NCBI GenBank assembly: GCA_021811185.1
Contig: JAJZPL010000003.1
Span: 62,001 to 126,000 of the forward strand
Source of the DNA: a bacterium
GTDB lineage: Bacteria > Elusimicrobiota > Elusimicrobia > Elusimicrobiales > UBA9959
Length of the DNA stretch: 64,000 nt
Reading direction: 5' to 3'
The notes beneath the pieces are model-generated. The model was not told the origin of the DNA. It ran no database searches and saw only the letters and a list, made by a program, of their open reading frames with translations. Of the stretch, positions 40,266 to 63,712 are shown in pieces (position 1 is the first letter of the stretch; each line of letters starts with the position of its first letter). The position numbers and the translations under genes are program-made.

Positions 40266-40306
40266 ACGGTCACGGGATCTATCGGGACCTGAAGGTGCTG
40301 CCATAT

Positions 40307-41998
40307 ATGTTCGATACCCTGCAGATAGCTGTCTTTGCCGGCCTGTTAGTCCTGCTGACGCCGCCGCTTGGGAGTTTCATGGCGCGGGTGTTCGCGGGGG
40401 AAAGGACTTTCCTTTCGCCCGCCCTGGGCCCGCTGGAAAGGCTGGTCTACCGGCTGGGCGGCGTCGCCGCGGAGGATGAAATGAACTGGCGGGAATATTC
40501 CCGGGCCGTCCTGGCGTTCAGCGCCGTCGGCCTGGCCGCCGTATTCCTTATGCAGGTCTTCCAGGCTTACCTGCCGCTGAACCCCAACGAACTGGGCAAT
40601 GTGGAATGGTCGAGCGCCCTGAATACCGCGGTCAGCTTCATGACCAATACCGACTGGCAGGGCTACGCCGGAGAGACGACCATGAGCTTTTTTACCCAGA
40701 TGCTGGGGCTGGCCGTGCAGAACTTCGTGAGCGCCGCCGCCGGCATAGCGGTTTTCCTGGCGCTGGCGAGGGGGATCTCGAGGAAGAGCACAGATCTCAT
40801 AGGCAACTTCTGGGCCGACCTGGTCCGCGGCACGCTCTATGTGCTGCTGCCGCTCTCGCTGCTCCTGGCCTTTGTCCTTGTCAGCCAGGGGGTAGTGCAG
40901 AACTTTTCGGCTAACAGGGCGATCACCACGCTGGAAGGCGCCCGGCAGTCCATCCCGCTGGGGCCGGCGGCGTCCCAGATCGCGATCAAGCAGCTCGGAA
41001 CTAACGGCGGCGGCTTTTTCAACGCCAACAGCGCCCACCCTTTCGAAAACCCCACGCCGCTCTCTAATTTCCTGGAGGCGCTCTCGATACTCCTGCTGCC
41101 GGCCGCCCTGGTCTATACCTACGGCATCATGATCAAGGACAAGAGGCACGCCTGGGTCATCTACGCGGTGATGTTCGCCATCTGGGCGGGCGGCCTTGGA
41201 ATTTCGCTCTATTCCGAACGCTACGCCTCGGAGCGGCTCTTTAACGGCATGCCGCTGATGGAAGGCAAAGAAACCCGCTTCGGCGCGGCTAACAGCCTGC
41301 TCTGGGCCACGGCCACCACGGCCGCCTCCAACGGCTCCGTCAACGCCATGCACTCCAGCCTGTCGCCGCTGGCCGGCGGGGTGGCGCTGTTCAATATGCA
41401 CCTGGGCGAGATAGTCTTCGGCGGGGTCGGTTCCGGGATGTACGGCATGCTGTTCTACGTGCTGATGACCGTCTTCCTGGCGGGGCTGATGGTGGGCAGG
41501 ACGCCAGAATACCTTGGCAAGAAAATAGAGAAGCGCGAGGTGCAGATGGCCATGATCGGCATGCTGGCGCCGGGAGCGCTGATACTGCTCGGCACAGCCG
41601 CGGCATGTATCCTTCCCGCCGGGCTTTCCTCGCTTTCCGCCAGGGGCCCGCACGGCTTCAGCGAGCTGCTCTACGCCTTCTCCTCAGCGGCCGCCAATAA
41701 CGGCAGCGCGTTCGCCGGCCTGAACGCGAACACCCCGTTCTACAACCTTGCGCTGGCTTTCGCCATGCTCGCGGGGCGCTTTGTCTGCCTGCTGCCGGCG
41801 CTCGCCATCGCGGGTTCCATGGCGGAAAAAAAGTCCGCGCCGCCTTCGTCCGGCACTTTTTCCACGGGGAACTTCCTGTTCGCTTTCCTGCTGACCGGCG
41901 TAATAATGATAGTAGGCGTGCTGACCTTCGTGCCCGCGCTGGCCCTTGGCCCGGTCCTTGAACACATGCTGATGGCGAAAGGCCTGTTCCTTTTTTAG
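40307..41998 (+). CDS. kdpA: Potassium-transporting ATPase subunit A
   Basis: KdpA is the channel-like, potassium-binding subunit of the KdpFABC pump. The 563-residue product has about ten membrane helices and the four selectivity-filter-like loops: FMTNTDWQGYAGE, KQLGTNGGGFFNANSAHPFENPT, TTAASNGSVNAM and SAAANNGSAFAGL. These are all typical of KdpA. The ATG at 40307, with GAAGG upstream, is preferred over the in-frame GTG at 40295. kdpB follows after nine bases. Domain order and filter sequences look complete. Confidence 0.97.
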   Translation: MFDTLQIAVFAGLLVLLTPPLGSFMARVFAGERTFLSPALGPLERLVYRLGGVAAEDEMNWREYSRAVLAFSAVGLAAVFLMQVFQAYLPLNPNELGNVEWSSALNTAVSFMTNTDWQGYAGETTMSFFTQMLGLAVQNFVSAAAGIAVFLALARGISRKSTDLIGNFWADLVRGTLYVLLPLSLLLAFVLVSQGVVQNFSANRAITTLEGARQSIPLGPAASQIAIKQLGTNGGGFFNANSAHPFENPTPLSNFLEALSILLLPAALVYTYGIMIKDKRHAWVIYAVMFAIWAGGLGISLYSERYASERLFNGMPLMEGKETRFGAANSLLWATATTAASNGSVNAMHSSLSPLAGGVALFNMHLGEIVFGGVGSGMYGMLFYVLMTVFLAGLMVGRTPEYLGKKIEKREVQMAMIGMLAPGALILLGTAAACILPAGLSSLSARGPHGFSELLYAFSSAAANNGSAFAGLNANTPFYNLALAFAMLAGRFVCLLPALAIAGSMAEKKSAPPSSGTFSTGNFLFAFLLTGVIMIVGVLTFVPALALGPVLEHMLMAKGLFLF

Positions 41999-42007
41999 GG
42001 TAAAACT

Positions 42008-44098
42008 ATGGAAGAAAAGAAAAAGCCGGCTTTCGATAAAATGCTGATACTCGGGAGTTCGGTGGAAGCGTTTAAGAAACTCGACCCGCGGGTGCAGGCC
42101 CGCAACCCCGTAATGTTCGTCACGCTGATCGGCGCGGCGCTTACCACGGCCGCCACGGCGCGGTCGCTCGCGGCCGGCCCGTTCCCGCTTTTCGAGTTCC
42201 AGATAAGCCTCTGGCTCTGGTTCACCGTGCTGTTCGCCAACTTCGCGGAGGCCCTGGCCGAGGGGAGGGGGAAAGCCCAGGCCGAAAGCCTGCGGCGGTC
42301 CCGCGTTGAAGTGACGGCCCGCCTGCTTAAGGACGGCAGCGAGGTGAAAGTGCCCTCCTCCGGCGTGACCAAAGGCGACCTCGTGGTCTGCGAAGCGGGG
42401 GATATAATCCCCGCGGACGGCGAGGTCGTGGAAGGCATAGCCAGCGTGGACGAGTCGGCCATCACCGGCGAGTCGGCGCCGGTCATAAGGGAAAGCGGCG
42501 GGGACCGGAGCGCGGTCACGGGCGGCACGCGCGTGATCAGCGACAGGCTGGTGATCCGCGTGACCGCGGAGCAGGGCAAGAGTTTCATAGACCGCATGAT
42601 AGCCCTGATAGAAGGCGCTAAACGGCAGAAGACGCCCAACGAAATAGCGCTGGTCATGGTGCTTTCCGGACTTACCCTGGTATTCCTCCTGGCCGTTTCC
42701 ACGCTGAAAGTTTTCGCCGATTATGCCGGGTTTTCCGCGGGGCAGGACCTGGGCGGGCTGGTCACCGTTCCCGTGCTGGCCGCGCTGCTGGTCTGCCTGA
42801 TCCCCACCACCATCGGCGGCCTGCTGAGCGCCATAGGCATAGCGGGAATGGACCGCCTGATAAGGCGCAACGTGATAGCGAAAAGCGGGCGCGCGGTGGA
42901 AGCCGCTGGAGACATCGACGTGCTGCTGCTGGACAAGACCGGCACCATAACCCTGGGCAACCGCATGGCCACGGCTTTTATCCCGGCGCCGGGAGTTACC
43001 GAAGAGGCCCTGGCCGAGGCGTCCCAGCTGGCCTCGCTTTCCGACGAGACGCCCGAGGGGCGGTCCATAGTGGTGCTGGCGAAAAAACGCTTCGAACTGC
43101 GCGCCCGCGAACTTCACCCGGCGGAATCGTGCTTCGTCCCTTTCTCGGCGGCCACCCAGGTCAGCGGCATCGACATGAAGAACCAGGACGGGAAAATGAT
43201 CCGGTCGATAAGGAAGGGGGCCGTGGACACCATCAGGGAGCAGGCGTCGAAGGCCGGGCTTGAATTCCCGCCCGCGCTGGAGGCGGCGCATAAGGAGATC
43301 GGCGGCAGCGGCGGCACCCCGCTGGCGGTTGCCGAGAACGGGAAAGTTATCGGGCTCATCCACCTTAAGGATATGGTGAAGGGCGGTATAAAGGAACGCT
43401 TCGCCCAGCTCCGGAAGATGGGGATAAGGACCATAATGATAACCGGCGACAACCCGCTCACCGCCGCCGCCATCGCCGCCGAGGCCGGGGTGGACGATTT
43501 TATCGCCCAGGCGACCCCGGAATCCAAACTGGCCCGCATAAGGCGGGAGCAGGAAGCGGGCCAGCTGGTGGCCATGACCGGGGACGGCACCAACGACGCG
43601 CCGGCCCTGGCCCAGGCCGACGTGGGCGTGACGATGAACACCGGCACCCAGGCGGCCAGGGAAGCCGGCAACATGGTGGACCTGGAGAGCAACCCCACCA
43701 AGCTGATCGAGATCGTGGAGATCGGCAAGCAGCTGCTGATGACCCGCGGCTCGCTCACCACCTTCAGCATAGCCAACGACGTAGCGAAGTACTTCGCTAT
43801 CATCCCCGCGCTGTTCGCCACGCTCTACATGACGGAACGGCGCGGCGGCGCGCTCGCGGGCCTGAACATCATGGGGCTGCATTCCCCGGAGAGCGCCATA
43901 CTCAGCGCGGTCATTTTTAACGCGATCATCATAGTGCTCCTTATCCCGCTCGCGCTGAAGGGGGTCGCGTACCGGCCCGAAAACGCCGGCCGGGTGCTGC
44001 GCCGCAACCTGCTTATCTACGGCGGAGGCGGCATAATCGCGCCGTTCATCGGCATAAAGCTTATCGATCTTCTTATTACCGCGGCGAAACTGGTGTAA
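42008..44098 (+). CDS. kdpB: Potassium-transporting P-type ATPase subunit B
   Basis: KdpB is the ATP-hydrolysing subunit. The 696-residue product shows the phosphorylation motif DKTGT (D309), the actuator TGES (153-156), [20 protein letters not shown] and [18 protein letters not shown] in the P domain, and [12 protein letters not shown] in the membrane. The serine of TGES (S156) corresponds to the residue whose phosphorylation inhibits the E. coli pump. All catalytic residues are intact. The kdpC start lies 10 bases downstream. Confidence 0.98.
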
Positions 44099-44108
44099 AG
44101 GCTGACAT

Positions 44109-44681
44109 ATGAGAACATTCCTGCCCGCCCTCAAGATCTTCCTGGTCCTGACCGTTATCACCGGACTGGCCTACCCGCTGGCCGTAACGGCGTTCGCCAG
44201 GCTTTTCTATCCGCTGAAGGCCGGCGGCAGTTTTATCGTGCGCAACGGGCGGGCCGCCGGCTCGGAACTGATAGGGCAATCGTTCAAGGAGCCCCGCTAT
44301 TTCCAGGGGCGGCCTTCCGCTACCGGCTACAACCCTCTCCCGTCCGGGGGCAGCAACCTTTCCCCGGCTTCGCTGGCGGTTAAAACACAAGTGGAAGCCG
44401 GGCTGGCGGCCTTTCTGGCCGCCAATCCCGGGGCTTCGGGCAAACCGGTCCCGGCCGAGATGGTGTTCGCCTCCGCCAGCGGCCTGGACCCGCATATAAC
44501 TCCTGAGGCGGCCGCGGCGCAGCTGGAAAGGGTCGCGCGCTCCCGCGGCTTTGATTCCGACCAAAAAAAAGAGTTAGTATCATTGATAGTTTCCCTGACG
44601 GAAAGGAAGTACCTCGGCATTTTAGGCGAGCGCCGCGTTAATGTCCTGGAACTTAACCTCGGGCTGGACGATATAAAATGA
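44109..44681 (+). CDS. kdpC: Potassium-transporting ATPase subunit C
   Basis: KdpC is a single-span subunit that helps ATP binding to KdpB. The 190-residue protein has one N-terminal helix (about 7-28) and the family motifs GSELIGQSF, YFQGRPSAT, PSGGSNLSP, VPAEMVFASASGLDPHITPEAA and LNVLELNLGL. The stop overlaps the kdpD start (ATGA), so pump and sensor genes form one transcript. Confidence 0.97.
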   Translation: MRTFLPALKIFLVLTVITGLAYPLAVTAFARLFYPLKAGGSFIVRNGRAAGSELIGQSFKEPRYFQGRPSATGYNPLPSGGSNLSPASLAVKTQVEAGLAAFLAANPGASGKPVPAEMVFASASGLDPHITPEAAAAQLERVARSRGFDSDQKKELVSLIVSLTERKYLGILGERRVNVLELNLGLDDIK

Positions 44682-47380
44682 ATCCCGACGAAGAAGACCG
44701 GCCGGACCCGGACCTGCTGCTGAAAGCCGTAAAACAGCAGAACACGCGTGACCGCGGCGGGAAACTGCGCGTCTTTTTCGGCATGTCCGCGGGCGTGGGA
44801 AAAACCTACGCCATGCTGGAGGCCGCCCACGCCCTGAACGAGGAAGGCGTAGACGTGGCGGCCGGCCTCGTAGAGACCCACGGCAGGGCCGAGACCATGG
44901 CCCTCCAGGCGGGCATAGAGACCCTGCCCCGGAAACGGATCGTGTACCGCGGCAGGCAGTTCGAGGAACTGGACCTGGACGCGGTCCTGGCCAGGCGGCC
45001 GGAAGTGGCGCTGGTGGACGAACTGGCGCACACGAACATTCCCGGCTCCCGGCACGCCAAGCGCTGGCAGGACGTAATAGAGATCCTGGACGCGGGAATA
45101 GACGTGTACACCACGCTCAACGTTCAGCACATAGAGAGCAGGAAGGAGGACGTGGAGGTGGTCACCGGCATCCCGGTCCACGAGACCGTCCCCGACTCCG
45201 TGCTGGAGCGGGCCAGCCAGATAGAACTGATAGATATAACCCCCGGGGACCTGATAGAGCGCCTGGCCGAAGGCAGGGTTTACCTGGGCGAACAGGCAGG
45301 CCTGGCGGCGGATAATTTTTTCAGGACAGAAAAGCTTACGGCGCTCAGGGAACTCGCGCTACGGGTCACCGGCGAGATGGTGAGCAACGAATTGAAGAAC
45401 CTGGCGGCCCTGCGGCCCGGCGCGGGCTCCCTGCAAACGCGCGAGAAACTGATGGTGGCGGTCAGTTCAAGCCCCTATTCGGCGCAGCTGATCCGCGCCG
45501 CCCGCCGCGCGGCCTTCAGCAGGGAAGCCGATTGGGTGGCGATCAGCGTGGACACGGGCGAGACCGCCGGCGCCGCCGAGAAAAAGCGCCTGGCGGAGAA
45601 CCTGGAGCTCGCCAGGAAATTAGGGGCGGAGGTGCTGACCACCGCGGACCCCGACATCGTTTCCGCCCTTATACGCATGGCGCGGCAGCATAATGTCACG
45701 CAGATCATCCTTGGCCGCCCGCGCGGCAGCTGGTGGAAGAACCTGCTGCGGGGCGGCACGCTGCTGGACAAGTTCGTGGCCGTCGCCGACATAGATATCC
45801 ACGTTATGCGCGTGCACGAACTGGAAGGCGGAGAGAAAGCCCCGCAGGCCCGCAGGCTTCCGGCGGGAGACATGTTCGAGCCGGACGAATACCTGCGGAC
45901 GCTGGCCGGGCTGACGGCCGTGACGGCGCTGGGTTCGCTGCTGACCGGTTATATCGGCTATAAATCCGTGGGGTTCATCTATCTGCTCGCCGTGATGCTG
46001 ACGGGGCTGTTCTACGGCCTGGGGCCGGTGCTGCTGGCCGCGCTGCTGGGCGCCGTCTGCTGGAATTATTTCTTCATCCCTCCGCTTTACGCTTTTCACA
46101 TTTACGACACCGCGGACATCATAATGTGCGCCGTGTATTTCGTGACCGCGCTTATCATGGGCTCGCTGACGTACAGGATCCGGAGCCGCGAGCGCCTGCT
46201 GCGGCAGCGCGAGGAGCGCAACGAGACCATGTACGACATCGTGGAAACCATCGCCCTTTGCCTGAGCCGGGAGGAATGCGTAAAGGACCTCTGCGGCAAG
46301 ATAGGGGCGGTGCTCGACGGAGAATGCGCCGTATTGTTCCGGGACTCGAAGGGGGACCTGACGGAGCTGCCTACCCCGTTCAAACTGTGGTTCTGGGACC
46401 AGAAGCGGCGGGCGGTGGCCAAGTGGGCTTACGAGAACGACCAGCCCGCCGGCTGGTCGACGGAGACCCTTTCCATGTCCGGCACGCTGAACCTGCCCCT
46501 TAAAGGGCCTTCCGGGATCTCCGGCGTGCTGGCCTTCCTTCCCCGGAACCGCGGCCGCACGCTCTCGCTCGACGAGAGCAATCTCCTTAACGCCGCGGCC
46601 GCCCAGATGGCGGTTTACCTGGAACGCGAGAATTTCCGCGAAAGCGCCATGGAGACGAAAAAGCTCGAGGAATCCGAGCGGCTGCACCAGACCATCCTGA
46701 ACAGCATCTCGCACGAGATTAAAACCCCTCTCACCGCAATAATGGGCCTGTCCTCGGCCCTCGAGACCGGCGAGGTGGGCGGGAACCCGGAACTGCGCGG
46801 CCAGCTCCTGGGCGAGCTGGGCGAGGAGGTGGTCAGGCTCAACCGGGAGATCAACAATATCCTGGATATGTCCAGGCTCAGTTCCGGCGTGCTCACCCTG
46901 AAGAAGGAGTGGACCGATATGCGCGAGGTAGCCAACGCCTGCGCGGTAAAGCTGAAGAGGGAGCTGGCGCGCCACCGCCTTTCCGTTAAAATTCCCGAAG
47001 GACTGCCGCTCCTTAAACTGGACTTCCCGCTTTTCGAGTCCGCGCTTTCCAACCTGCTGCTTAACGCCGCGAACTACACCCCGGAAAAAAGTTCCATCGA
47101 GATCTCGGCGGGATCGGCCGGCGGGGAATTCCTGCTGCGCGTTTCCGACAACGGTCCGGGCCTCCCTGAGGAACAATTGGCCTCCGTGTTCGAAAAATTC
47201 TACAGGGCGCCCGGCAGCCGGGTCGGGGGCACCGGCCTCGGCCTGAGCATAGCCAAAAGCGTGGTGGAAGCGCACGGCGGCCGGATCGAGGCTAAGAACC
47301 GCGCCGGGGGCGGGCTGGAGCTTACGGTTTACCTGCCGCTGGAAAAGCAGCCGGAAATAGAAAGGAGCGAGGAACAATGA
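44678..47380 (+). CDS. kdpD: Sensor histidine kinase KdpD
   Basis: The 900-residue product is a full-length KdpD. It has the N-terminal KdpD domain with Walker A GMSAGVGKT (35-43) and its Walker B-like VDELAHTNIPGSRH, a universal-stress-protein-like domain (about 255-375), and a DUF4118 set of four membrane helices (about 405-500). A GAF-like domain (about 530-650) follows, then the phospho-acceptor H679 in HEIKTPLTA and a C-terminal HATPase domain. It senses potassium limitation or ionic strength and phosphorylates KdpE. It overlaps both kdpC and kdpE by four bases. Confidence 0.97.
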   Translation: MNPDEEDRPDPDLLLKAVKQQNTRDRGGKLRVFFGMSAGVGKTYAMLEAAHALNEEGVDVAAGLVETHGRAETMALQAGIETLPRKRIVYRGRQFEELDLDAVLARRPEVALVDELAHTNIPGSRHAKRWQDVIEILDAGIDVYTTLNVQHIESRKEDVEVVTGIPVHETVPDSVLERASQIELIDITPGDLIERLAEGRVYLGEQAGLAADNFFRTEKLTALRELALRVTGEMVSNELKNLAALRPGAGSLQTREKLMVAVSSSPYSAQLIRAARRAAFSREADWVAISVDTGETAGAAEKKRLAENLELARKLGAEVLTTADPDIVSALIRMARQHNVTQIILGRPRGSWWKNLLRGGTLLDKFVAVADIDIHVMRVHELEGGEKAPQARRLPAGDMFEPDEYLRTLAGLTAVTALGSLLTGYIGYKSVGFIYLLAVMLTGLFYGLGPVLLAALLGAVCWNYFFIPPLYAFHIYDTADIIMCAVYFVTALIMGSLTYRIRSRERLLRQREERNETMYDIVETIALCLSREECVKDLCGKIGAVLDGECAVLFRDSKGDLTELPTPFKLWFWDQKRRAVAKWAYENDQPAGWSTETLSMSGTLNLPLKGPSGISGVLAFLPRNRGRTLSLDESNLLNAAAAQMAVYLERENFRESAMETKKLEESERLHQTILNSISHEIKTPLTAIMGLSSALETGEVGGNPELRGQLLGELGEEVVRLNREINNILDMSRLSSGVLTLKKEWTDMREVANACAVKLKRELARHRLSVKIPEGLPLLKLDFPLFESALSNLLLNAANYTPEKSSIEISAGSAGGEFLLRVSDNGPGLPEEQLASVFEKFYRAPGSRVGGTGLGLSIAKSVVEAHGGRIEAKNRAGGGLELTVYLPLEKQPEIERSEEQ

Positions 47381-48063
47381 CCACAGGCGCCAAGATACTC
47401 GTGGTGGACGATGAAAAATCCATCCGGCGTTTCCTGGAAGTAGGCCTCGAAACCCAGGGGTACAGCGTGCTTCTGGCCAGGAACGGGAAGGAGGGGGTAA
47501 AACAGGCCGCCGACCACCACCCCGACCTGATAGTCCTGGACCTGGGGCTCCCGGATATCCACGGGCTGGAAGTGCTGAAAAAGGTGCGCGAATCCTCCGC
47601 CACCCCCGTCATCGTCCTGACGGTACAAAGCTCCGACAAGGATAAGGAAACGCTGCTGGACTCCGGGGCCGACGATTACGTGACGAAACCTTTCAGCATG
47701 ACGGAACTTTCGGCCCGCATCCGCGTGTGCCTGCGCCACAGCATAAATCTTAAGGATACCCCCGTTTTCGAGAGCGGCCCGCTGCGGATAGATTTCGCCA
47801 AACGCTCCGTGACAGTTAACGGCAATCCGGTCAAACTTACCCCGACAGAATTCGACCTGCTTAAAGCCCTGGCCCGCCACCCGGGCCGGATAGTGACCCA
47901 GCAGCAGCTGCTTAAAGAGATCTGGGGGCCCGCATCCCTGGAGCAGGCCCACTACCTGCGTATTTACATAGGCCAGCTCCGGAGAAAGATAGAGAAAGAC
48001 CCGGCAGTAAGCGGCCTTATCCTGACCGAACAGGGCGTCGGCTACCGCCTCAACCTGCCATAA
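47377..48063 (+). CDS. kdpE: Response regulator KdpE
   Basis: The 228-residue product is an OmpR-family regulator. Its receiver domain has acidic D11/D12, phospho-acceptor D55 in LIVLDLGLP and the lysine in DYVTKPFSM. The C-terminal winged helix has KLTPTEFDLLKALARHPG and a recognition helix region (LEQAHYLRIYIGQLRRKIE). It would activate the kdp promoter through the box at 40100. It ends the operon. No strong terminator follows; a G/C-rich imperfect hairpin is seen near 48090-48115. Confidence 0.96.
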   Translation: MTTGAKILVVDDEKSIRRFLEVGLETQGYSVLLARNGKEGVKQAADHHPDLIVLDLGLPDIHGLEVLKKVRESSATPVIVLTVQSSDKDKETLLDSGADDYVTKPFSMTELSARIRVCLRHSINLKDTPVFESGPLRIDFAKRSVTVNGNPVKLTPTEFDLLKALARHPGRIVTQQQLLKEIWGPASLEQAHYLRIYIGQLRRKIEKDPAVSGLILTEQGVGYRLNLP

Positions 48064-51845: not shown

Positions 51846-51925
51846 GCTTTGTCCCCGCAGGGAGAGCGGGCAGCCAGAGAGAACTTGACACGGCCTTTAC
51901 AAGTCAAGCCCGGAGTAGGTCCTAA

Positions 51926-51945
51926 GACCCAGAAGCGGCTGGGCC
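51926..51945 (+). promoter_or_regulatory. Candidate operator dyad upstream of tandem-family gene 1
   Basis: CCCAG (51928-51932) and CTGGG (51939-51943) form a five-pair dyad with a six-base spacer, flanked by an A-C mismatch and a G-C pair. The same geometry occurs at 53897-53916, at the same distance (65.5 bases from dyad centre to the -10 box). It could bind a regulator. Confidence 0.4.
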
Positions 51946-51977
51946 CAAATATCTCGCCGGCCTGGGCCCTTTGATGC

Positions 51978-52006
51978 TGATATGTTTTGCCGTTCGGCAC
52001 TATACT
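51978..52006 (+). promoter_or_regulatory. Predicted promoter of tandem-family gene 1
   Basis: TGATAT (51978-51983), 17 bases, TATACT (52001-52006). The element GCTGATAT plus 17 bases plus TATA-T is repeated upstream of gene 3 (53949-53977). The ATG at 52042 has AAAAGGAG before it. Confidence 0.5.
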
Positions 52007-52041: not shown

Positions 52042-52890
52042 ATGAAAACCAACCTCTCCTCCTTCTCCGCGGTCTTCCTGGCGGCATTCGCATTCACCGT
52101 AGCGTCGGCCTCCGCGCAGGAACTCATAGAAAGAGCCTCCGACCCCAACGCCCCGGAATTCACTAAATACGAAAAAGACAATTCCAGGGTGGACCCCGAT
52201 TACTACACGATAAAGAAAGACTCCATAAAAGTTAGCCTGGTGTCCGTGGAGGACGAGCAGGTGATAGACTACGTGCAGCTCCAGGAGAACCCGGCCAAGG
52301 ACCTGGCGAGCGCCCTGGTGAACATCGACAGCATCGTCAACGTTGCGTCCAAGGTCTGGGCCATAGTAGAAGCCAACGCCCCCGTAGTAAACATAAACAC
52401 AAAGTACGCCACCGCCTATCCCCAGGGCGTCACCTCCGCCACCCAGCTGGCCGGGTGGAGCCGCCCCAAGTCCTACACCTACTCCTTCTACGCCGAAAAC
52501 CTTTACGGCATGGTAATGATAGACTGCAAATACAAGATGTCTTTCACCTACGGCGGCGCTTATAAGGGTAAGGGCAAGTTCCTCACCGGGGTAGCGGTAA
52601 TCCCCACCACGGTCACCGCGGGCTGGGGCTACAAGTTCTACATGAACGCCGCCGTGCCCGATTCCACCATCGCCAACGTCGGCACCGACACCGACCCGGT
52701 CGCCGCCATGCAGATGAAGCTTTCCTGGACCATGAAGACCGTGCTCAAGGAAGTGGACGGCACCAGCATTTACTACGTAGAGGGCAACGGCTATTTCGAA
52801 GAGATAGCCAGCCCGTTCAAGAAGAAAGAGAAGCAGATAGAGGAAGTTAAGTCGGCGGCCCCGCTGCTGACTCCGGAGAAACTGTTCTAA
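52042..52890 (+). CDS. Secreted protein of an unrecognised tandem family, member 1
   Basis: The 282-residue product has a signal peptide (cut near ASA-QE), a charged N-terminal stretch and a domain of about 190 residues shared with the next two genes. Shared segments include VASKVWAIVEANAPVVNI, ATQLAGWSRP, YKGKGKFLTGV and VPDSTIANVGT, then IYYVEGNGYFEEI. No cysteine pair, lipobox or enzymatic motif is evident in the shared domain. Unlike the other two it lacks the proline-rich linker. I do not recognise the family. The alternation of polar and aromatic residues suggests a beta-rich fold, exported to periplasm or surface. Codon use resembles that of highly expressed genes. Confidence 0.8.
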   Translation: MKTNLSSFSAVFLAAFAFTVASASAQELIERASDPNAPEFTKYEKDNSRVDPDYYTIKKDSIKVSLVSVEDEQVIDYVQLQENPAKDLASALVNIDSIVNVASKVWAIVEANAPVVNINTKYATAYPQGVTSATQLAGWSRPKSYTYSFYAENLYGMVMIDCKYKMSFTYGGAYKGKGKFLTGVAVIPTTVTAGWGYKFYMNAAVPDSTIANVGTDTDPVAAMQMKLSWTMKTVLKEVDGTSIYYVEGNGYFEEIASPFKKKEKQIEEVKSAAPLLTPEKLF

Positions 52891-52935
52891 CCAGTACCCG
52901 TCCGATAAGCGGGCAAAAAAAAGGAGACACGACAA

Positions 52936-53826
52936 ATGAAGAAAGTCCTAGCTATAACCGCAGCCATAACAGCGCTGTTCGCGGGCAGGGTTTCGGCGGC
53001 CGACGTTACTGACCCCCGGTACTTCACCGTGGACGAAAACTCCATAACGATCGAAGAGCTCGCTCCCGACAGGGGCGGCACCATTCCCGGCCCCGGCGAA
53101 CTGCCCAAGCCTCCCTCGGGCCCGGTCACTCCGCCTTCCGGTCCCGTTCTCAATCCGCCGCTGGACAATCCGGGAGACAACCCCGGCGCGCCCGTGGATC
53201 CGCAGGCGGGGTTCAACAACGCCGTCGACAACATCAACAGCACCGTAGGCGTGATCGACAATATCGTCAACCTTGCCCAGAAGATCTGGGACATTATCGA
53301 GAAGAACCAGCCCGTGGTGAACATCGCCACCAACTACGCCAACGCAGTCCCTTACGGCATGAGCCACTGGACCCAGCTGCAGCAGTGGAGCAAGCCGGCC
53401 ACCAAGAAGTATTCGTTCTCCATGAAGAACGGCTTCGGTTCCGAAGTGGTGAAGGTCACCTACCAGGTGCACTATACCTATAACGGCAACTTCCAGGGCA
53501 AGGGCAAGTTCCTCACCGGCGTTACCATCGAGCCGCTCGAAGTGGTTACCGCCTGGGGCTATAAAGTAAGCCTGGTTTCCGAAGTGCCGGATTCCACCAT
53601 CGCGAACGTCGGCACCAGCGCCGACCCCGTGGCCTCCATGCAGGTGCAGCTCCGCTGGACCGCCCACACCGCCCTTAAGGACATAACCTCCAAGGCTATC
53701 TACTACGTGCAGGGCGACGGCCTGCTGCAGGAGATCGGCACGCCTTTCAAGAACGCCCAGGAGATCAAGAGCCGGAAAGACGCCGAGGCGGTTAAAGTAC
53801 GGATAGCGACCTCCAGCTTCAACTAA
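52936..53826 (+). CDS. Secreted protein of the unrecognised tandem family, member 2
   Basis: The 296-residue product has a signal peptide (cut near SAA-DV), a short acidic segment (DPRYFTVDENSITIEEL), and a proline/glycine-rich linker at about 50-95 (PGPGELPKPPSGPVTPPSG). The shared domain follows from about residue 95 (VGVIDNIVNLAQKIWDIIEK, WTQLQQWSKP, GKGKFLTGVTIEP, VPDSTIANVGTS). It is only 45 bases downstream of member 1, with a GGAG site and no strong promoter, so it is probably co-transcribed. It differs from member 3 at 18 of roughly 209 residues after the linker, so the pair duplicated recently. Function unknown. Confidence 0.8.
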   Translation: MKKVLAITAAITALFAGRVSAADVTDPRYFTVDENSITIEELAPDRGGTIPGPGELPKPPSGPVTPPSGPVLNPPLDNPGDNPGAPVDPQAGFNNAVDNINSTVGVIDNIVNLAQKIWDIIEKNQPVVNIATNYANAVPYGMSHWTQLQQWSKPATKKYSFSMKNGFGSEVVKVTYQVHYTYNGNFQGKGKFLTGVTIEPLEVVTAWGYKVSLVSEVPDSTIANVGTSADPVASMQVQLRWTAHTALKDITSKAIYYVQGDGLLQEIGTPFKNAQEIKSRKDAEAVKVRIATSSFN

Positions 53827-53850
53827 GCGGCCAAGACAGAGCATTTACAG

Positions 53851-53881
53851 CCCGGCGCCGGAAATACCGGCGCCGGGTTTT
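53851..53881 (+). terminator. Terminator after tandem-family member 2
   Basis: Perfect 11-base inverted repeat CCCGGCGCCGG/CCGGCGCCGGG around AAATA, followed by TTTT. It ends the transcript of members 1 and 2. Confidence 0.85.
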
Positions 53882-53896
53882 ACTTTATAACCTAAA

Positions 53897-53916
53897 GACC
53901 TATACGGGCATAGGCC
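53897..53916 (+). promoter_or_regulatory. Candidate operator dyad upstream of tandem-family gene 3
   Basis: CCTAT (53899-53903) and ATAGG (53910-53914) with a six-base spacer and the same flanking A-C mismatch and G-C pair as the site at 51926. The preceding CTAAAG context is also shared. The stem bases differ but pairing is kept in both, which suggests that the symmetry is under selection. Confidence 0.4.
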
Positions 53917-53948
53917 TTAATCTTCCGCCCAGGTGGGTATTTAGCCGC

Positions 53949-53977
53949 TGATATTCTTTGGCGCAAGGCTGTATAAT
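53949..53977 (+). promoter_or_regulatory. Predicted promoter of tandem-family gene 3
   Basis: TGATAT (53949-53954), 17 bases, TATAAT (53972-53977), about 36 bases before the ATG at 54014. It matches the gene 1 promoter at 51978 in both boxes and spacing. Confidence 0.55.
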
Positions 53978-54013
53978 TTATCTAGCGGCAATCGGTCAAA
54001 GGACAAAGGCAAA

Positions 54014-54910
54014 ATGAAAAAGATCATCACACTCACTGCGGCAATAGCGGCGCTCTTCGCCGGAAGGGTTTCCGCGGCCGATATCACGGACCCCAGGTAC
54101 TTCTCGGTGGACGAAAAGTCCATCGTAATAGAAGAGCTCTCCGACATCTCTTCAAGGGGCGGCACCATCCCCGGCCCCGGCGAACTGCCCAAGCCTCCCT
54201 CGGGCCCGGTCGCTCCTCCTTCCGGCCCCGTGATCAACCCTCCCATGCAGAATCCCGGGGATAACCCCGGCGCGCCCGTGGATCCGCAGGCCGGGTTCAA
54301 CAACGCCGTAAACAACGTCAACAGCACCATCGGCGTGATCGACAATATCGTGAACCTGGTCGACAAGATCTGGACCATCATAGAGAAGAACCAGCCCGTG
54401 GTCAACATCGCCACCAACTACGCCAACGCCGTGCCTTACGGCACCAGCCACTGGACCCAGCTGCAGGGCTGGAGCAGGCCCGCCACCAAGAAGTTCGCCT
54501 TCTCCATGAAGAACGGCTTCGGTTCCGAAGTGGTGAAGGTCGTCTACCAGGTGCATTACACTTATAACGGCAACTTCCAGGGCAAGGGCAAGTTCCTCAC
54601 CGGCGTAACCATCGAGCCGCTCAACGTGGTGACCGCCTGGGGCTACAAAGTGACCCTCGTTTCCGAAGTGCCGGATTCCACCATAGCGAACGTAGGGACC
54701 TCGACCGACCCCGTGGCCTCCATGCAGGTGCAGCTGCGCTGGACCGCCCACACCGCCGTAAAGGACATAACCTCCAAAGCGATATATTACGTACAGGGCG
54801 ACGGCCTGCTGCAGGAGATCGGCACGCCTTTCAAGAACGCGCAGGAAATAAAAAGCCGGAATGACGCCGAGGCTGTTAAGGTGCGGATAGCCGGGTCAAG
54901 CTTCAACTAA
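54014..54910 (+). CDS. Secreted protein of the unrecognised tandem family, member 3
   Basis: The 298-residue product repeats the layout of member 2: signal peptide (SAA-DI), the acidic DPRYFSVDEKSIVIEEL, a proline-rich linker (about 50-95) and the shared domain (IGVIDNIVNLVDKIWTIIEK, WTQLQGWSRP, GKGKFLTGVTIEP, VPDSTIANVGTS, IYYVQGDGLLQEI). It has its own promoter, dyad and terminator, so it can be expressed separately from members 1 and 2. Near identity to member 2 in the second half, with small differences clustered in the first half of the domain, suggests either recent duplication or gene conversion. Function unknown. Confidence 0.8.
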   Translation: MKKIITLTAAIAALFAGRVSAADITDPRYFSVDEKSIVIEELSDISSRGGTIPGPGELPKPPSGPVAPPSGPVINPPMQNPGDNPGAPVDPQAGFNNAVNNVNSTIGVIDNIVNLVDKIWTIIEKNQPVVNIATNYANAVPYGTSHWTQLQGWSRPATKKFAFSMKNGFGSEVVKVVYQVHYTYNGNFQGKGKFLTGVTIEPLNVVTAWGYKVTLVSEVPDSTIANVGTSTDPVASMQVQLRWTAHTAVKDITSKAIYYVQGDGLLQEIGTPFKNAQEIKSRNDAEAVKVRIAGSSFN

Positions 54911-54933: not shown

Positions 54934-54972
54934 ACCCCGGCGCCAGTTTAACTGGCGCCGGGGTGCTTTTTT
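54934..54972 (+). terminator. Terminator after tandem-family member 3
   Basis: Perfect 13-base inverted repeat (ACCCCGGCGCCAG with CTGGCGCCGGGGT) around five bases, followed by TTTTTT. It also lies near the end of the opposing dnaJ-type gene. Confidence 0.9.
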
Positions 54973-57007: not shown

Positions 57008-57883
57008 TCAGTGGGCCTGAAAAACTTTAACGCCTACGCGGCCGGCCAGGGTAGTATCGTCCACGAAAGGATTCCGGTTGCCCTGGAACTTCGCTATAAG
57101 GTCGTTGCGGCGCTTCTCCGCCGCGTCCGGCGGGTCCTGGCGGTCCCATTCCAGGAACATCGGCACGCGGCTGGTCCAGAAATCCTTATAATTCACGCCA
57201 TCCTTTATGTTCTGGTCGTAGTAGCGGACCACGAAGTAAAGCATGGCGCGGGCGATGTCGCCTTTGGCGGCGTTGGCGGGCTCGAACCCCTCCGCTCCCA
57301 GCTTGGAGCCGCTGTTGGTGGCATAGTCCGCCCGTGAGACCACGGCGAAGGGTTCGCTGCCGCGGGTATTATTAGGCTTCATGAAAGTGGGGAAAATATG
57401 ATGCAGATCGGCGCGCATGGGCAGGGCCTGGTTGAAAAAACTCTGCGGCCAGGAATGCTCGGCGTTCATGCCGTCGGAATCCACGAAGTCGTCGCCGTTC
57501 TGGTCGCCGACTTCCTTATAGTCCTCGCCATGTTCGCTGGCGCCCTTGGCGCAGACCTGGGAATACAGGCACGTCACGCCGGGGCCGCCGCCGCAGCCGG
57601 CGTTGTCGGCCACCGAGAACATATATTTTTTGGCGCTAAGGTAAGCCGTGGCCTTGGGGGGCGCGGTTATGGCGGTGCTGTCGTGCAGGTACGCGAAAAG
57701 GGCTTCGCCGGAAAGGGGGGAGGCGGAAACGCGTTCGGCGCCGGAGGCTTGAGGGATATCGGATTGGGCGGGAAGCGCGGAGAGGAAGTTCTCCAGACTG
57801 GGCAGGTCCTGGGCCCCGGCCCCGCTGCAGCAGAAACCGGCGGCTAAAAGGGAGAGTACGAAGAACAACGCTTTGCGTTTCAA
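57008..57883 (-). CDS. Secreted endonuclease I family protein, copy 1
   Basis: The 291-residue product has a signal peptide (ending GAGA-QD) and the EndoI/EndA-type beta-beta-alpha-metal nuclease region: E142-H143-S-W-P-Q, RADLHH (161-162) and NNTRG (171-175). These are the usual metal and catalytic positions. Just before them is a calcium-loop-like DQNGDDFVDSDG. Cysteines at about 97, 105 and 111 may form a disulphide. It would degrade DNA or RNA outside the cytoplasm. The start codon is TTG with a strong AGGAGG, the same leader as copy 2. It diverges from a TonB receptor gene. Confidence 0.9.
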   Translation of the reverse strand: MKRKALFFVLSLLAAGFCCSGAGAQDLPSLENFLSALPAQSDIPQASGAERVSASPLSGEALFAYLHDSTAITAPPKATAYLSAKKYMFSVADNAGCGGGPGVTCLYSQVCAKGASEHGEDYKEVGDQNGDDFVDSDGMNAEHSWPQSFFNQALPMRADLHHIFPTFMKPNNTRGSEPFAVVSRADYATNSGSKLGAEGFEPANAAKGDIARAMLYFVVRYYDQNIKDGVNYKDFWTSRVPMFLEWDRQDPPDAAEKRRNDLIAKFQGNRNPFVDDTTLAGRVGVKVFQAH

Positions 57884-58031: not shown

Positions 58032-60233
58032 ATGTTTAACGATATCAGGTTGCGCGCCGCGCTTTGCTGCGCTTTGTTCTGCGCCGGCGCGCCGCGCGCT
58101 TTTTGCCAGGAAGGCGGGGTGGATTTCTTCCAGTCCTCGCTCAGCGAGATCATGGACACTCCGATGCTGGCGGCTTCCTATTCCGAGGAACGGCCCTCCG
58201 ACGCGGCCGCGACCGCCTACGTGATAACCGCCGAAACCATCGAAAAACGCGGTTATTCTACGCTGGCCGGCCTCCTGAACGATATCCCGCAGTTCCAGGT
58301 GCAGCGCAACTCCGACGTGCGCCGCCTCAACGTAGTAAGCGTCCGCGGCGTCCCCTATAACGAAAGGCTGGTCATCCTGTACGACGGGGTGCGGGTAACG
58401 CCGCCTACCGGCGACGTGATGAGCCTGGGCGGCCAGTTCTCGCTCAAGACCGCGGAGCGCGTGGAGATAGTGCTCGGGCCTATGTCCTCGCTCTACGGGG
58501 CCGACGCCTTCAGCGGGGTGATAAATATCGTAACGCGCAAGCCGGGATCCGCGGCGGCGGGAGCGAAGTACGGCAGTTTCAATTCCCGGGCCGGAAATAT
58601 TTCCGCTTCCGGCGGCCTGCCGCCGGAGAGGCTGGCCGACAACCCCGGCGTGGCCTCGGCGTCCGTGGCTTACGAGGCGCAGGCGAGCGCCAACCCGAAA
58701 CTCCCGGACCTTTACAAAACCGACTATTCCTGGTTCAACAATGAGTATCAGAGCGGCAAAGAGAAACTCCCGGACTCTTCCATAAAAACCGGGCTGCCGG
58801 TAGTGAAATATGACGCGGCTACCGGATCCGCTTTCCTTAACGCCAGGCTTAACCTCGGAGATTTCGAAGCAGGCCTGATAAAAATGCGCGAATCCCACTC
58901 CTCTTCCATCGGCGTGAAGCCGGAGCTGACCATCTACGGCAAGGACTCGCGCTTCATCACCGAGGACTGGACCCTTTACGGGCGCCACAGCTATACCGCC
59001 TCCGACGAGAGCTGGAAACTTTCCACGCAACTCTCCCATTACAATTACAACATAGACCCGGAGACCAGGTTCGTGAACAGTTTTTCAGGCTATACCGACG
59101 CCTTCAAGTACGCCTCCTCGCAGACCAATTCGCTAGAGGAGGTCCTTTCATTCGAGCCTGCCGAGGGCTTTCCGGCCCTGGTGGGCTTCACCTACCAGGA
59201 CAACTCCGTCCTGCCTTACACTTCGGACCTGGGACACAAGTTCAACACGTCTTTGAGCCCGGGGTCGCAGGATTTCGTCTACGCGGGGTCCACTATTCCC
59301 GTGGATTTCTATTCGCTCCGCTACTCCAACACCGGGGCTTTCCTGCAACTGCAGGCGCGCGAAATAGGCAACGTCTCCGTCTCCCTGGGAATGCGGTACG
59401 ACTACAACACCGCCTACGGCCCCACCTGGAACCCCCGCGCGGGGCTGGTCTGGAAACCGGGAGGGGAGGAGACTACGGTGGTAAAGCTGCTGTACGGCGA
59501 AGCCTACCTGGCCCCGTCCCCTTTTTACACGCATAAACACTTCGGGTCTTTCGTCTCCTCGCCCACCCCCACCGGGTATTACAGCTATTTCTTCCACGTC
59601 CCGAGCGACGACCTGGACCCGGAGAAGATACGCTCCGTGGAGGCGGACCTCGCCCACAGTTTCGGCCACGGCCTGCGCGTCTCGGTCAATCCATATTACA
59701 CCAGGGTCAGGGACCTGATCCAGGACGTCTTGACCGGCCCCGGCACCTTCCACGGCGTGGACGTACTGCAGATAGAAAAGGCCATGAACCGTGGCTCCAT
59801 GGAAACCTACGGGGCCACCCTGCGGGCCGACGCGGTGCTGCGCGGCGGGAAATGGAGCTTTGAACCCTGGGCGGCCTATACTTATTCCGAGGGCCGCCTT
59901 GCGGGGTCCCCGCTGCCGTTCAATTCAAGGCATACCCTGCAGTCGGGTGTATCGGCCCTGCGCGGCAGGTGGACGGTAACCCCGAAAGCGCTGTACCGCT
60001 CGGAAAGCCGCGACCAGGACGGAATAAGGGTCCCGCAGTTCACGGTCGTAGACATGTCCGTGCGCTATGCTTTCTCCCGCATGAAAATGGGGGCGCTGAC
60101 GGCCTACCTGAACCTTAAAAATATTTTAGACAGGCGCTATTACAACGGCGCCTACGGCGGGGGGGCGGACCACCTGGCCGGCGCCCCGCAGGACCCGTTT
60201 TCGGCGGAGGCCGGGTTCAGCCTGAAATTTTAA
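58032..60233 (+). CDS. TonB-dependent outer-membrane receptor
   Basis: The 733-residue product has a signal peptide and an N-terminal plug domain (about 50-165): VITAETIEKRGYSTLAGLLN, IPQFQVQRNSDVRRLNVVSV, RGVPYNERLVILYDGVRV and YGADAFSGVINIVTRKPG. A long barrel with many aromatic-capped strands follows and ends FSLKF, the typical terminal phenylalanine. It imports a ligand across the outer membrane using TonB energy. Ligand unknown. No ExbB/ExbD/TonB genes are in the window. The next gene, a periplasmic binding-protein-like gene, starts three bases after the stop. Confidence 0.93.
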   Translation: MFNDIRLRAALCCALFCAGAPRAFCQEGGVDFFQSSLSEIMDTPMLAASYSEERPSDAAATAYVITAETIEKRGYSTLAGLLNDIPQFQVQRNSDVRRLNVVSVRGVPYNERLVILYDGVRVTPPTGDVMSLGGQFSLKTAERVEIVLGPMSSLYGADAFSGVINIVTRKPGSAAAGAKYGSFNSRAGNISASGGLPPERLADNPGVASASVAYEAQASANPKLPDLYKTDYSWFNNEYQSGKEKLPDSSIKTGLPVVKYDAATGSAFLNARLNLGDFEAGLIKMRESHSSSIGVKPELTIYGKDSRFITEDWTLYGRHSYTASDESWKLSTQLSHYNYNIDPETRFVNSFSGYTDAFKYASSQTNSLEEVLSFEPAEGFPALVGFTYQDNSVLPYTSDLGHKFNTSLSPGSQDFVYAGSTIPVDFYSLRYSNTGAFLQLQAREIGNVSVSLGMRYDYNTAYGPTWNPRAGLVWKPGGEETTVVKLLYGEAYLAPSPFYTHKHFGSFVSSPTPTGYYSYFFHVPSDDLDPEKIRSVEADLAHSFGHGLRVSVNPYYTRVRDLIQDVLTGPGTFHGVDVLQIEKAMNRGSMETYGATLRADAVLRGGKWSFEPWAAYTYSEGRLAGSPLPFNSRHTLQSGVSALRGRWTVTPKALYRSESRDQDGIRVPQFTVVDMSVRYAFSRMKMGALTAYLNLKNILDRRYYNGAYGGGADHLAGAPQDPFSAEAGFSLKF

Positions 60234-61162: not shown

Positions 61163-62053
61163 TCAATGCGCTTCGAATACGGCTTCGCCTATCTTGTCGG
61201 CCAGGGCGGGGTTGTCTATGAAAGGATTGCGGTTGCCCTGGAACTTCTCCACCAGGTCGTTGCGGCGGCGCTCGTTGGCGTCCGGCGGGTCCATGCGGTT
61301 CCACTGCAGCAGCATGGGCACGTTCTTGGTCCAGAAAGCGTCGTAATTCATGCCGCCCTGGCGGATGCTGTGGTCGTAGTAGCGCACCACGAAGTACAGC
61401 AGGGCGCGGGCCACGTTGCCCTTGGCGGCGTCGGCGGGTTCATAACCCTCCTTGCCCAGTTTAGAGCCGGCGGAGGTGCTGTAAGTGGCGTTCGAGACCA
61501 TCGCGTATTTAAGGTTGCCGCGGCGGCCGTTGGGGACGGAGAGAGTGGAGCCAAGCTGGTGCAGATCGGCCACCATCGGCAGGTTGCTGTTAAAGTAGCT
61601 CTGGGGCCAGATATGTTCGGCGTTTATAAAGTCGCCGCTTTTCCCGTCCCCGTTCTGGTCGCCCTGTTCCTTATAGGAGTTCCCGTTGCCTCCGGAACCG
61701 TTTATGCAGACCTGGGAATACAGGACTATTATGCCGGGACCGCCGTTGCAGCCGGTATTGTCGGCCGTGGCGTACATATAAGACTTCGACGCTTTATAGG
61801 ACGGCTGAAAGGTAGGGGCGGGGGTAACGGACTGGTGAAGGTACTGGAACAGTTGTTCGCCGGAAAGCGAAGGGTCGGGGGCCTGCTGCGCCTTATAGAG
61901 CGCGGGGGTTCCCGGCATGGGTACGGCGATATCCAGGAACGCCGCCGGAACGGAAGCCCTCAGGGCTTCTAAAGCCGGGACCTGGGCTGCCAGGTTAGAG
62001 AGGGGGGAGAGGTTAAGTACCGCAAGTAAGAGTATTCCAACGAAGCGTTTCAA
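61163..62053 (-). CDS. Secreted endonuclease I family protein, copy 2
   Basis: The 296-residue product is a paralogue of the 57008 gene: signal peptide (ending NLAAQ), NAEHIWPQSYF (E146, H147), VADLHQLG (163-168) and NGRRGN. It differs at the second histidine (LHQ instead of LHH) and in the calcium-loop-like DQNGDGKSGDF. It starts at TTG with the same GGAGGAATC leader as copy 1. Upstream, on the minus strand, a dyad and promoter resemble those of the tandem family. The two nuclease genes flank the TonB receptor and binding-protein genes. Confidence 0.9.
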   Translation of the reverse strand: MKRFVGILLLAVLNLSPLSNLAAQVPALEALRASVPAAFLDIAVPMPGTPALYKAQQAPDPSLSGEQLFQYLHQSVTPAPTFQPSYKASKSYMYATADNTGCNGGPGIIVLYSQVCINGSGGNGNSYKEQGDQNGDGKSGDFINAEHIWPQSYFNSNLPMVADLHQLGSTLSVPNGRRGNLKYAMVSNATYSTSAGSKLGKEGYEPADAAKGNVARALLYFVVRYYDHSIRQGGMNYDAFWTKNVPMLLQWNRMDPPDANERRRNDLVEKFQGNRNPFIDNPALADKIGEAVFEAH

Positions 62054-62143: not shown

Positions 62144-62180
62144 GGCCAAAGGGCCCAGATGTTATCTGGGTCCTTTGGCC
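62144..62180 (-). repeat. Long inverted repeat upstream of endonuclease copy 2
   Basis: Seventeen-base arms (GGCCAAAGGGCCCAGAT and its complement, one G-T mismatch) around GTT. No T-run follows on either strand, so it does not look like a terminator. The core (CCCAG/CTGGG) and the adjoining CTGGGCCCTTTG match the dyad region upstream of the tandem family (51928-51973). Confidence 0.6.
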
Positions 62181-62980: not shown

Positions 62981-63712
62981 CTACCAAAGATTCACGTCAA
63001 GCTGCACGGTAAAAGTATCCGCGCCGGCCACTTTCGGGTTATTGTAGATGTCATAACCTAACAGCAGGCTGGTGTTCGGAGTGAAAGCCCAGGAAAAACC
63101 GAAACTGAGCGCGCCGAGGGCGGAGCCGCCGCCCTGGTAGTCCACCGCCGCCCAGAGCTTGTCGGAGATCTCGCTTATGGTCCGGTCCCAGGAAAGCAGC
63201 GCGCCGTTATTGGCCTTCTTGCCGTTCTCGTCCACCAGCACCTTATCGTTGCCGGAGAAGTAGCCGGCGGAGAGCCGGCCGAGTTTGCCGAAATTCCTGG
63301 CGGCCAGGCCGTAGACCACGTCCTGGTCCGTGACGTCCTTTTTAAGGCCGAAATTATAGCCGCCCAGCGCCAACGCCGGAGAACCGGAGAAAAGCGAGCC
63401 CTCTGGGGTACCGGCCTTGGCGTGCAGGTAGACCGGGTAGCTGTCCGCGGGAAGCCCGGCTTTCATCACGTCGAAACCGGCTTCGGCCTGTACTTTCTCA
63501 TACGGCAGCACGCCGATGGTGGGCCCGATCATGAAAACCGGGGCTTTCCAGGTTCCGTTATCCTCTTTCTGCGCCGCGACGTAGTTGTCCACGTTCAGAT
63601 GCGCTACCTTGTATTTCTGAATATCGGTGGAGGGGATCCAGATCTGTGTGGACGGGGTAGCGCCCGCGGCCGAGGCCGACAGCATCAACGCGGTCATTAT
63701 GATCTTTTTCAT
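62981..63712 (-). CDS. Small outer-membrane beta-barrel candidate
   Basis: The 243-residue protein has a signal peptide (MKKIIMTALMLSASAAGA) and alternating strands such as PVFMIGPTIGVLPYEKVQAEAG, NFGKLGRLSAGYFSGN and ALSFGFSWAFTPNTSLLLGY. It ends FTVQLDVNLW, an aromatic C-terminus typical of barrels. No specific family is recognised. It may be an outer-membrane protein of about ten strands. It lies 67 bases downstream of the ammonium transporter gene, with an imperfect G/C-rich hairpin between them, so co-transcription is possible. Confidence 0.75.
   Translation of the reverse strand: MKKIIMTALMLSASAAGATPSTQIWIPSTDIQKYKVAHLNVDNYVAAQKEDNGTWKAPVFMIGPTIGVLPYEKVQAEAGFDVMKAGLPADSYPVYLHAKAGTPEGSLFSGSPALALGGYNFGLKKDVTDQDVVYGLAARNFGKLGRLSAGYFSGNDKVLVDENGKKANNGALLSWDRTISEISDKLWAAVDYQGGGSALGALSFGFSWAFTPNTSLLLGYDIYNNPKVAGADTFTVQLDVNLW

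What the first reader, a model, noticed from the sequence alone, without database searches (positions are those of the whole stretch)
52042..54910. Three tandem paralogues of an unrecognised secreted protein family
Three adjacent genes encode exported proteins sharing a roughly 190-residue domain with very conserved blocks (GKGKFLTGV, VPDSTIANVGT, IYYV-G-G). Members 2 and 3 also share a proline-rich linker and differ at only 18 of about 209 positions after it; member 1 is diverged and lacks the linker. No family comes to mind. Tandem expansion, restricted codon use, own promoters and strong terminators suggest abundant secreted proteins with a lineage-specific role, for example surface structure or ligand binding.
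Basis: partly seen in the sequence, partly recalled or inferred. Interest (0 to 1): 0.7.

Follow-up and report, generated by a model that had tools for sequence, protein, structure and literature searches.

The report
New exported family, shared enzyme promoter
Three neighbouring genes encode an unnamed exported protein family seen here only in the bacterial phylum Elusimicrobiota, and their promoters carry a DNA element that also precedes many genes for exported degradative enzymes, which gives a first testable clue to what these proteins do.

Summary
In detail: three intact adjacent ORFs encode exported proteins sharing one domain; members 2 and 3 differ at 18 of 210 positions after the linker. 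No usable Pfam, NCBIfam, PHROG or PDB sequence match. Relatives: 49 loci, recorded as Elusimicrobiota or unnamed 'bacterium' MAGs; 91 of 340 genomes of the phylum. AlphaFold gives a confident helix-beta-helix domain with a docked N-terminal strand; no fold match at E<=0.001. Genes 1 and 2 are an old unlike pair; gene 3 is a recent copy of gene 2.

The main new result lies partly outside the given coordinates. An inverted repeat lies upstream of genes 1 and 3 and of 43 of 80 leading family genes (shuffles 0.1), mostly at a fixed distance from the -10 box. All four family transcription units found in this genome carry it; elsewhere it mostly precedes exported proteins, many of them proteases, nucleases or other enzymes. 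Best reading: non-enzymatic extracellular component of an exported-enzyme regulon. 'Abundant, restricted codon use' is not supported. Molecular function and a single regulator are inferred.

The parts
52042..52890 (+). Gene 1, type 1 member (282 aa): signal sequence, N-terminal strand, short linker, shared domain, ends in F
   Evidence: type-1 clade of 42 rows, 95/89
52936..53826 (+). Gene 2, type 2 member (296 aa), Pro-rich linker, second gene of the unit
   Evidence: type-2 clade of 55 rows, 100/99
54014..54910 (+). Gene 3, type 2 member (298 aa), recent duplicate of gene 2 with its own promoter element
   Evidence: sisters 96/98
51916..51968 (+). Element of gene 1: half-sites TRGGYC at 51916, 51940, 51963 and reversed half-site at 51926
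51977..52006 (+). Promoter-like pair of hexamers of gene 1, -10 TATACT at 52001
53894..53921 (+). Element of gene 3: inverted repeat, 0 mismatches to the consensus
53948..53977 (+). Promoter-like pair of hexamers of gene 3, -10 TATAAT at 53972
53849..53879 (+). Terminator-like hairpin after gene 2
54934..54964 (+). Terminator-like hairpin after gene 3
61163..62053 (-). Exported endonuclease I gene, further element-bearing gene of the window
   Evidence: Pfam PF04231, E 1.2e-39; element upstream
62147..62176 (-). Element of the endonuclease I gene, spacer of 9 bp instead of 8

Best explanation
The genes encode a family, seen here only in Elusimicrobiota, of exported and apparently non-enzymatic proteins. 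Each has a signal sequence, a short N-terminal strand, a variable linker (Pro-rich in type 2) and a helix / beta / helix domain, and nearly always ends with an aromatic residue. In the window's bacterial family the basic unit is a type 1 - type 2 pair in one transcript, so the two probably act as unlike subunits. A transcription factor that binds TRGGYC-type half-sites upstream of the -10 box controls each unit, and the same element controls a set of exported degradative enzymes. The proteins therefore most likely work outside the cytoplasm together with those enzymes, as a binding or scaffold component in the breakdown of other cells or polymers. Shown by computation: family, signal sequence, confident domain model, pair, element, preferred spacing, association with exported genes. 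Inferred: one regulator, joint expression, release from the cell, and the binding or scaffold role.
For: Element within 250 bp of 43 of 80 leading family genes against a shuffled mean of 0.10, and of 0 of 40 second genes. Centre exactly 65 bp from the -10 box in 24 of 38 family sites; 10 of 27 non-family pairs at 42-44 bp and 8 of 27 at 64-66 bp. 33 strand-hits in the own genome against 6 for the reversed pattern. Exported ORF beside 37 of 49 examined sites of three genomes against 20 of 47 pseudo-sites, Fisher p 0.001; without family sites 32 of 44, p 0.003. With the 9-bp spacer 6 of 6 further sites. 12 of 18 scanned neighbours match enzyme families and one more Lnb_N. All four family units of this genome carry the element. 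No invariant or nearly invariant Cys or His in 80 rows.
Against: 37 of 80 leading family genes lack the element at <=3 mismatches and 27 at <=4, among them divergent pairs and several f8 copies. The base rate of exported neighbours is high (20 of 47). The reversed-pattern control is sizeable in G110 (18 against 47 hits) and in the 9-bp search (3 against 9). 9 of 27 non-family pairs have other spacings. The pattern was drawn from the family genes themselves. No expression data, no regulator, no proof of release from the cell; the role is a guess by association. Invariant residues alone cannot exclude an enzyme.
Confidence: 0.45

Rival explanations
1. Extracellular fibre or matrix protein: the N-terminal strand is donated to the next subunit (donor-strand exchange), the variable linker gives reach, and types 1 and 2 are the subunits of a secreted filament.
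For: An N-terminal strand (block pLDDT 93) is docked on the domain across a low-confidence linker; Ser15 of that strand is nearly invariant; conserved unlike pair.
Against: The model is a monomer and docks the strand in cis; no fold match to fibre proteins; no complex could be predicted.
Confidence: 0.2
2. Membrane-active (pore-forming or membrane-binding) secreted protein delivered with the enzymes: the long helix enters membranes while the beta domain anchors.
For: Long helix 72-104 before a beta domain; beside genes of attack type, e.g. an ADP-ribosyltransferase-like one.
Confidence: 0.1
3. Envelope protein (periplasm or outer membrane): the C-terminal aromatic residue is a signal for the outer-membrane insertion machinery, and the protein stays in the envelope.
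For: Aromatic residue among the last four in 109 of 120 members against 7, 3 and 6 of 120 in the three windows before it; two other window genes end in F or W (58032-60233, 62981-63712); UBA1565 is read as diderm (PMC9476967).
Against: The tail lacks the alternating hydrophobic pattern of barrel strands (position counts; pattern recalled); the model has a helix before the tail; no barrel among fold hits.
Confidence: 0.2
4. The element is a common promoter feature or a repeat of this phylum without regulatory meaning, and the link to exported enzymes is chance or selection of examples.
For: High share of exported neighbours by the crude rule (20 of 47); some sites lie beside a tRNA hairpin or in coding sequence (L144, L154, L159).
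Against: With flanks required only three places in 64 kb, all three before exported genes; without flanks there are four more places. Spacing to the -10 box is preferred; family genes that follow another lack it.
Confidence: 0.15

Closest known systems
Jointly regulated secreted-enzyme sets of predatory or scavenging bacteria (e.g. myxobacteria; recalled)
   Same: Exported proteases, nucleases, amidase, phospholipase-like and toxin-like genes share an upstream element.
   Different: The element and its factor are undescribed in the papers searched; joint expression is not shown; here a non-enzymatic family is part of the set.
Donor-strand fibres (chaperone-usher pili, TasA, archaeal bundling pili; recalled)
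   Same: N-terminal strand, linker, beta domain; unlike subunits.
   Different: No sequence or fold match; polymer not shown.
LptE and CsgG (envelope lipoproteins)
   Same: Appear among weak Foldseek hits (LptE 2r76 E 0.27, CsgG 4uv2 E 0.35).
   Different: Not significant, TM-score by query about 0.16 or less; no lipobox seen by eye in the three window proteins.

Membership tests
Any Pfam-A, NCBIfam or PHROG family | Match above the curated or a significant score | tested here: not met
   Three proteins: Pfam and NCBIfam none at E<=1, PHROGs one at 0.21. 80 members at E<=0.1: no Pfam family in more than one member, lowest E 0.016; NCBIfam lowest E 0.0045, most frequent name in 10 members at best 0.012; PHROGs lowest E 0.0024, at most 4 members
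LptE / CsgG type envelope lipoproteins | Same fold | tested here: not met
   Foldseek E 0.27 and 0.35, none at E<=0.001; one model only, so a weak test
Outer-membrane beta-barrel | C-terminal aromatic residue | tested here: met
   109 of 120 within the last four residues
Outer-membrane beta-barrel | Barrel whose last strand ends in that residue | tested here: not met
   Model has helix 250-273 before the tail; no barrel among the PDB fold hits shown
Donor-strand fibre protein | N-terminal strand completing a beta domain | tested here: inconclusive
   Docked strand 17-21 in a monomer model; trans exchange not modelled
Donor-strand fibre protein | Polymerisation | not testable with these tools
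   Needs purified protein
Exported-enzyme regulon | Shared upstream element beside exported genes | tested here: met
   37 of 49 sites against 20 of 47 controls, p 0.001; non-family 32 of 44, p 0.003
Exported-enzyme regulon | Common regulator and joint expression | not testable with these tools
   No expression data or regulator assignment

The most novel reading that the evidence does not exclude
Free-living Elusimicrobiota have a dedicated regulon, shared across orders, for attacking or digesting other cells, read by an undescribed factor from arrays of TRGGYC half-sites; a conserved part of it is a new two-subunit extracellular protein with a new fold, possibly a donor-strand fibre that holds enzymes or prey.
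Probability: 0.2. Interest if true: 0.8.

Novelty: new variant of a known kind. Interest (0 to 1): 0.55.

Why it matters
Few Elusimicrobiota have been cultured (recalled), so their way of life is mostly guessed from genomes. A promoter element that marks exported degradative enzymes would give a genome-readable list of what these bacteria send out, and it places an orphan protein family in that list. If true, it makes a scavenging or predatory lifestyle testable and gives a concrete target (the type 1 - type 2 pair) for structure and localisation work.

Tried and rejected
Sequence libraries and PDB sequences: nothing usable. Viral contigs, plasmids, phages: no relative. Foldseek against PDB and viral models: nothing at E<=0.001. 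Neighbourhood: PFOR and DnaJ-like genes flank the pair in f1 (27 of 49 loci show both), but neighbours of other copies differ, so I do not read the PFOR link as functional. Rfam on the region: two hits far below gathering scores. Codon use as a sign of abundance: rejected. The 902-residue open frame of L088 was a stop-to-stop artefact; the protein itself is about 283 residues. A strict pattern for the third half-site with spacing found gene 1 only. One G110 site (L177) was first read at a wrong position because its locus starts at a contig end; one search corrects 11 of 15 to 12 of 15. Papers: searches listed no title or abstract start that describes this family or element; seen: listings with abstract starts, passages of PMC11495043, whole text of PMC9476967. 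Absence from other phyla rests on one pattern-based scan of genome contigs, which can miss distant relatives.

Full report
The three ORFs are real. Window 52042-52890, 52936-53826 and 54014-54910 (+) encode proteins of 282, 296 and 298 residues with Sec-like signal sequences by eye. Member 1 is 43 and 42% identical to members 2 and 3. Members 2 and 3 share the Pro-rich linker and differ at 18 of 210 positions after it; dN 0.074 and dS 0.483 point to purifying selection. Genes 1 and 2 are 46 bp apart; hairpins with T-rich tails follow genes 2 and 3. The effective number of codons (34.2, 36.9, 36.6) lies within the range of 15 other window genes (27.4-40.8), so codon use gives no sign of special abundance.

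The family is unknown to the libraries. Pfam and NCBIfam gave nothing at E<=1 for the three proteins, PHROGs one hit at 0.21, PDB sequences none. Scanning 80 members at E<=0.1, no Pfam family matched more than one member (lowest E 0.016); the most frequent NCBIfam name matched 10 members at best 0.012 and the lowest E was 0.0045; PHROGs matched at most 4 members, lowest E 0.0024. I take these as chance. A profile of the 80 found no PDB sequence at E<=10. No relative came from viral contigs, plasmids or phages.

It is widespread in one phylum. The scan of genome contigs gave 49 loci, all recorded as Elusimicrobiota (two named Elusimicrobium) or as unnamed 'bacterium' MAGs. Of 340 genomes of the phylum 91 match: by my count of the listing 56 of family f1, 23 of f7, 8 of f8, 2 of f5 and 2 of f13. 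Three f1 genomes are shown without a match; the 17 f2 genomes shown have none and no f2 genome is among the matches; 229 genomes without a match are not listed. Family searches gave 23 of 44 for f7 and 8 of 8 for f8. G292 of f7 has one contig of 3,802,950 bases (and the locus list), the length of the Lake Zurich chromosome placed in order UBA1565 and read as a diderm aerobic heterotroph from an amoeba culture (PMC9476967, read whole); that identity is my inference. The own genome holds five copies: three in the window, one on C58, a distant one on C38.

History. A maximum-likelihood tree of 123 rows has a clade of 42 rows with gene 1 (type 1, 95/89) and a clade of 55 rows with genes 2 and 3 and the C58 copy (type 2, 100/99); the f7, f8 and f13 proteins fall outside both; genes 2 and 3 are sisters (96/98). 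Long branches make some deep joins unsure. Of 49 loci 36 hold two or more family ORFs on the match strand; 29 show PFOR, 32 the DnaJ-like gene, 27 both; contig ends hide some. So the window shows an old type 1 - type 2 pair at a conserved place with one recent extra copy.

Anatomy. AlphaFold on the mature gene-3 protein with 80 rows gave mean pLDDT 82.8 and pTM 0.70: a strand at 17-21 beside a block of pLDDT 93, a low-confidence linker of about 26-70, a helix 72-104, beta strands between 108 and 248, and a helix 250-273. Foldseek found nothing at E<=0.001 in PDB (best 0.13) or viral models (best 0.039). No Cys or His is among the invariant and nearly invariant residues of the 80 rows; Asp200, Ser201, Thr202, Glu247 and a few Lys are. 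I read the family as non-enzymatic, which is inference. The tail is odd: in 109 of 120 members one of the last four residues is aromatic, against 7, 3 and 6 of 120 in the three four-residue windows before it. One of the 11 exceptions, L085, is cut by a contig end.

The promoter element. Upstream regions printed side by side showed an inverted repeat, AARGRCCYA-N8-TRGGYCYWAAT. Within 250 bp of the start it occurs at <=3 mismatches in 43 of 80 leading genes of the family (shuffles: mean 0.10, largest 1 in 20 runs; 53 of 80 at <=4, mean 0.70) and in 0 of 40 genes that follow another family gene. The pattern came from these genes, so the count describes; the shuffles only show that composition does not explain it. 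The 37 without it include divergent pairs and several f8 copies. In 24 of 38 family sites with a -10 box the centre lies exactly 65 bp before the box. In 51 upstream regions half-site TRGGYC piles up at 38, 61 and 85 bp (24, 26 and 20) and the reversed half-site at 75 bp (24) before the box.

The element leads to exported genes. In the own genome the pattern at <=3 mismatches has 33 strand-hits against 6 for the reversed pattern, by my count 25 distinct places; 22 were examined. An automatic rule finds an exported ORF beside 18 of 22, by eye 19 of 22; three are family units. In two other genomes I examined the places for which loci were given: G110 12 of 15 (reversed control there 18 against 47 hits) and G292 7 of 12 (3 against 26). 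The same rule gives 20 of 47 for pseudo-sites upstream of other window genes and 137 of 1000 for random positions. 37 of 49 against 20 of 47 has Fisher p 0.001; without family sites 32 of 44, p 0.003; own genome alone 15 of 19, p 0.007. The rule also accepts membrane proteins, which raises the base rate. Of 33 chosen non-family gene-site pairs 27 had a -10 box; the centre lies 42-44 bp before it in 10, 47-48 in 4 and 64-66 in 8; 43 and 65 differ by 22 bp, about two helical turns (Rayleigh p 0.009; for the 38 family sites 1e-9, but these are not independent).

A follow-up. The exported endonuclease I gene at 61163-62053 proved to have the same element with a 9-bp spacer. Searching the own genome for that form at <=2 mismatches gave 9 strand-hits (reversed pattern 3), 7 places, one already counted; the 6 others all precede an exported ORF by eye: the endonuclease that prompted the search, the distant family copy on C38, and four new ones. 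So all four family transcription units found in this genome (gene 1-2, gene 3, C58, C38) carry the element. In the window, requiring flanks and a spacer of 7-10, there are three places, before gene 1, gene 3 and the endonuclease gene; without flanks four more.

What the other genes are. Of 18 non-family exported proteins beside own-genome places, 13 have a Pfam match at E<=0.001: PAD_porph, ribonuclease, PLDc, three of the metallo-beta-lactamase superfamily, Lnb_N, M14 carboxypeptidase, amidase, trypsin, M10 matrixin, C11 clostripain, ADP-ribosyltransferase exoenzyme; 5 have none. This looks like a set of exported degradative and attack-type enzymes, and the family like its non-enzymatic member. 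Whether it binds substrate, holds enzymes, forms fibres or touches membranes is open; I rate binding or scaffold first.

Known or new. Searches for the phylum name with secreted, predat, regulon, inverted repeat plus promoter, protein families plus groundwater, and extracellular peptidase terms listed no title or abstract start on the family or the element. One paper groups Elusimicrobiota sludge MAGs with two small-genome phyla as having the fewest predicted extracellular proteins, on average 15 at 1.36 Mbp (PMC11495043, passages); the genome here has 3.1 Mb. Subscription literature was not searched.

Noticed in passing
61163-62053 (-) and 57008-57883 (-): Two endonuclease I genes (PF04231) about 3 kb apart; only the first shows the element upstream.
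   Followed up: partly
L089:3039-4586 (-): A family member of 516 residues with a long C-terminal extension that has a transmembrane-like stretch followed by basic residues (by eye): perhaps a membrane-anchored version.
   Followed up: no
L145, L150, L162 (own genome C38, C3, C58): Three exported metallo-beta-lactamase-superfamily proteins beside element sites; they look like the C-terminal part of ComEC (recalled).
   Followed up: no
L165:1592-2416 (+), own genome C60: Exported protein with an ADP-ribosyltransferase exoenzyme match (PF03496, E 7.2e-10) beside an element site.
   Followed up: no
G243:C153:15675-16349 and G215:C51:463-1215: Family copies reported with one inner stop each; possibly decaying copies or assembly errors.
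   Followed up: no
40295-48063 (+): Run of genes that looks like a potassium-transport kdp operon with its two-component system (recalled from the translations; no search made).
   Followed up: no
exported proteins listed: Many element-bearing genes encode proteins with a similar F-x-x-L ... hydrophobic-P stretch just after the signal sequence; by eye only, maybe a shared propeptide or sorting mark.
   Followed up: no
L118, L119, L121, L122, L123 (other genomes of the window's genus): A second, divergent type 1 - type 2 pair at another place, without the upstream element at <=3 mismatches in the leading genes tested (L068, L119, L121, L122).
   Followed up: partly
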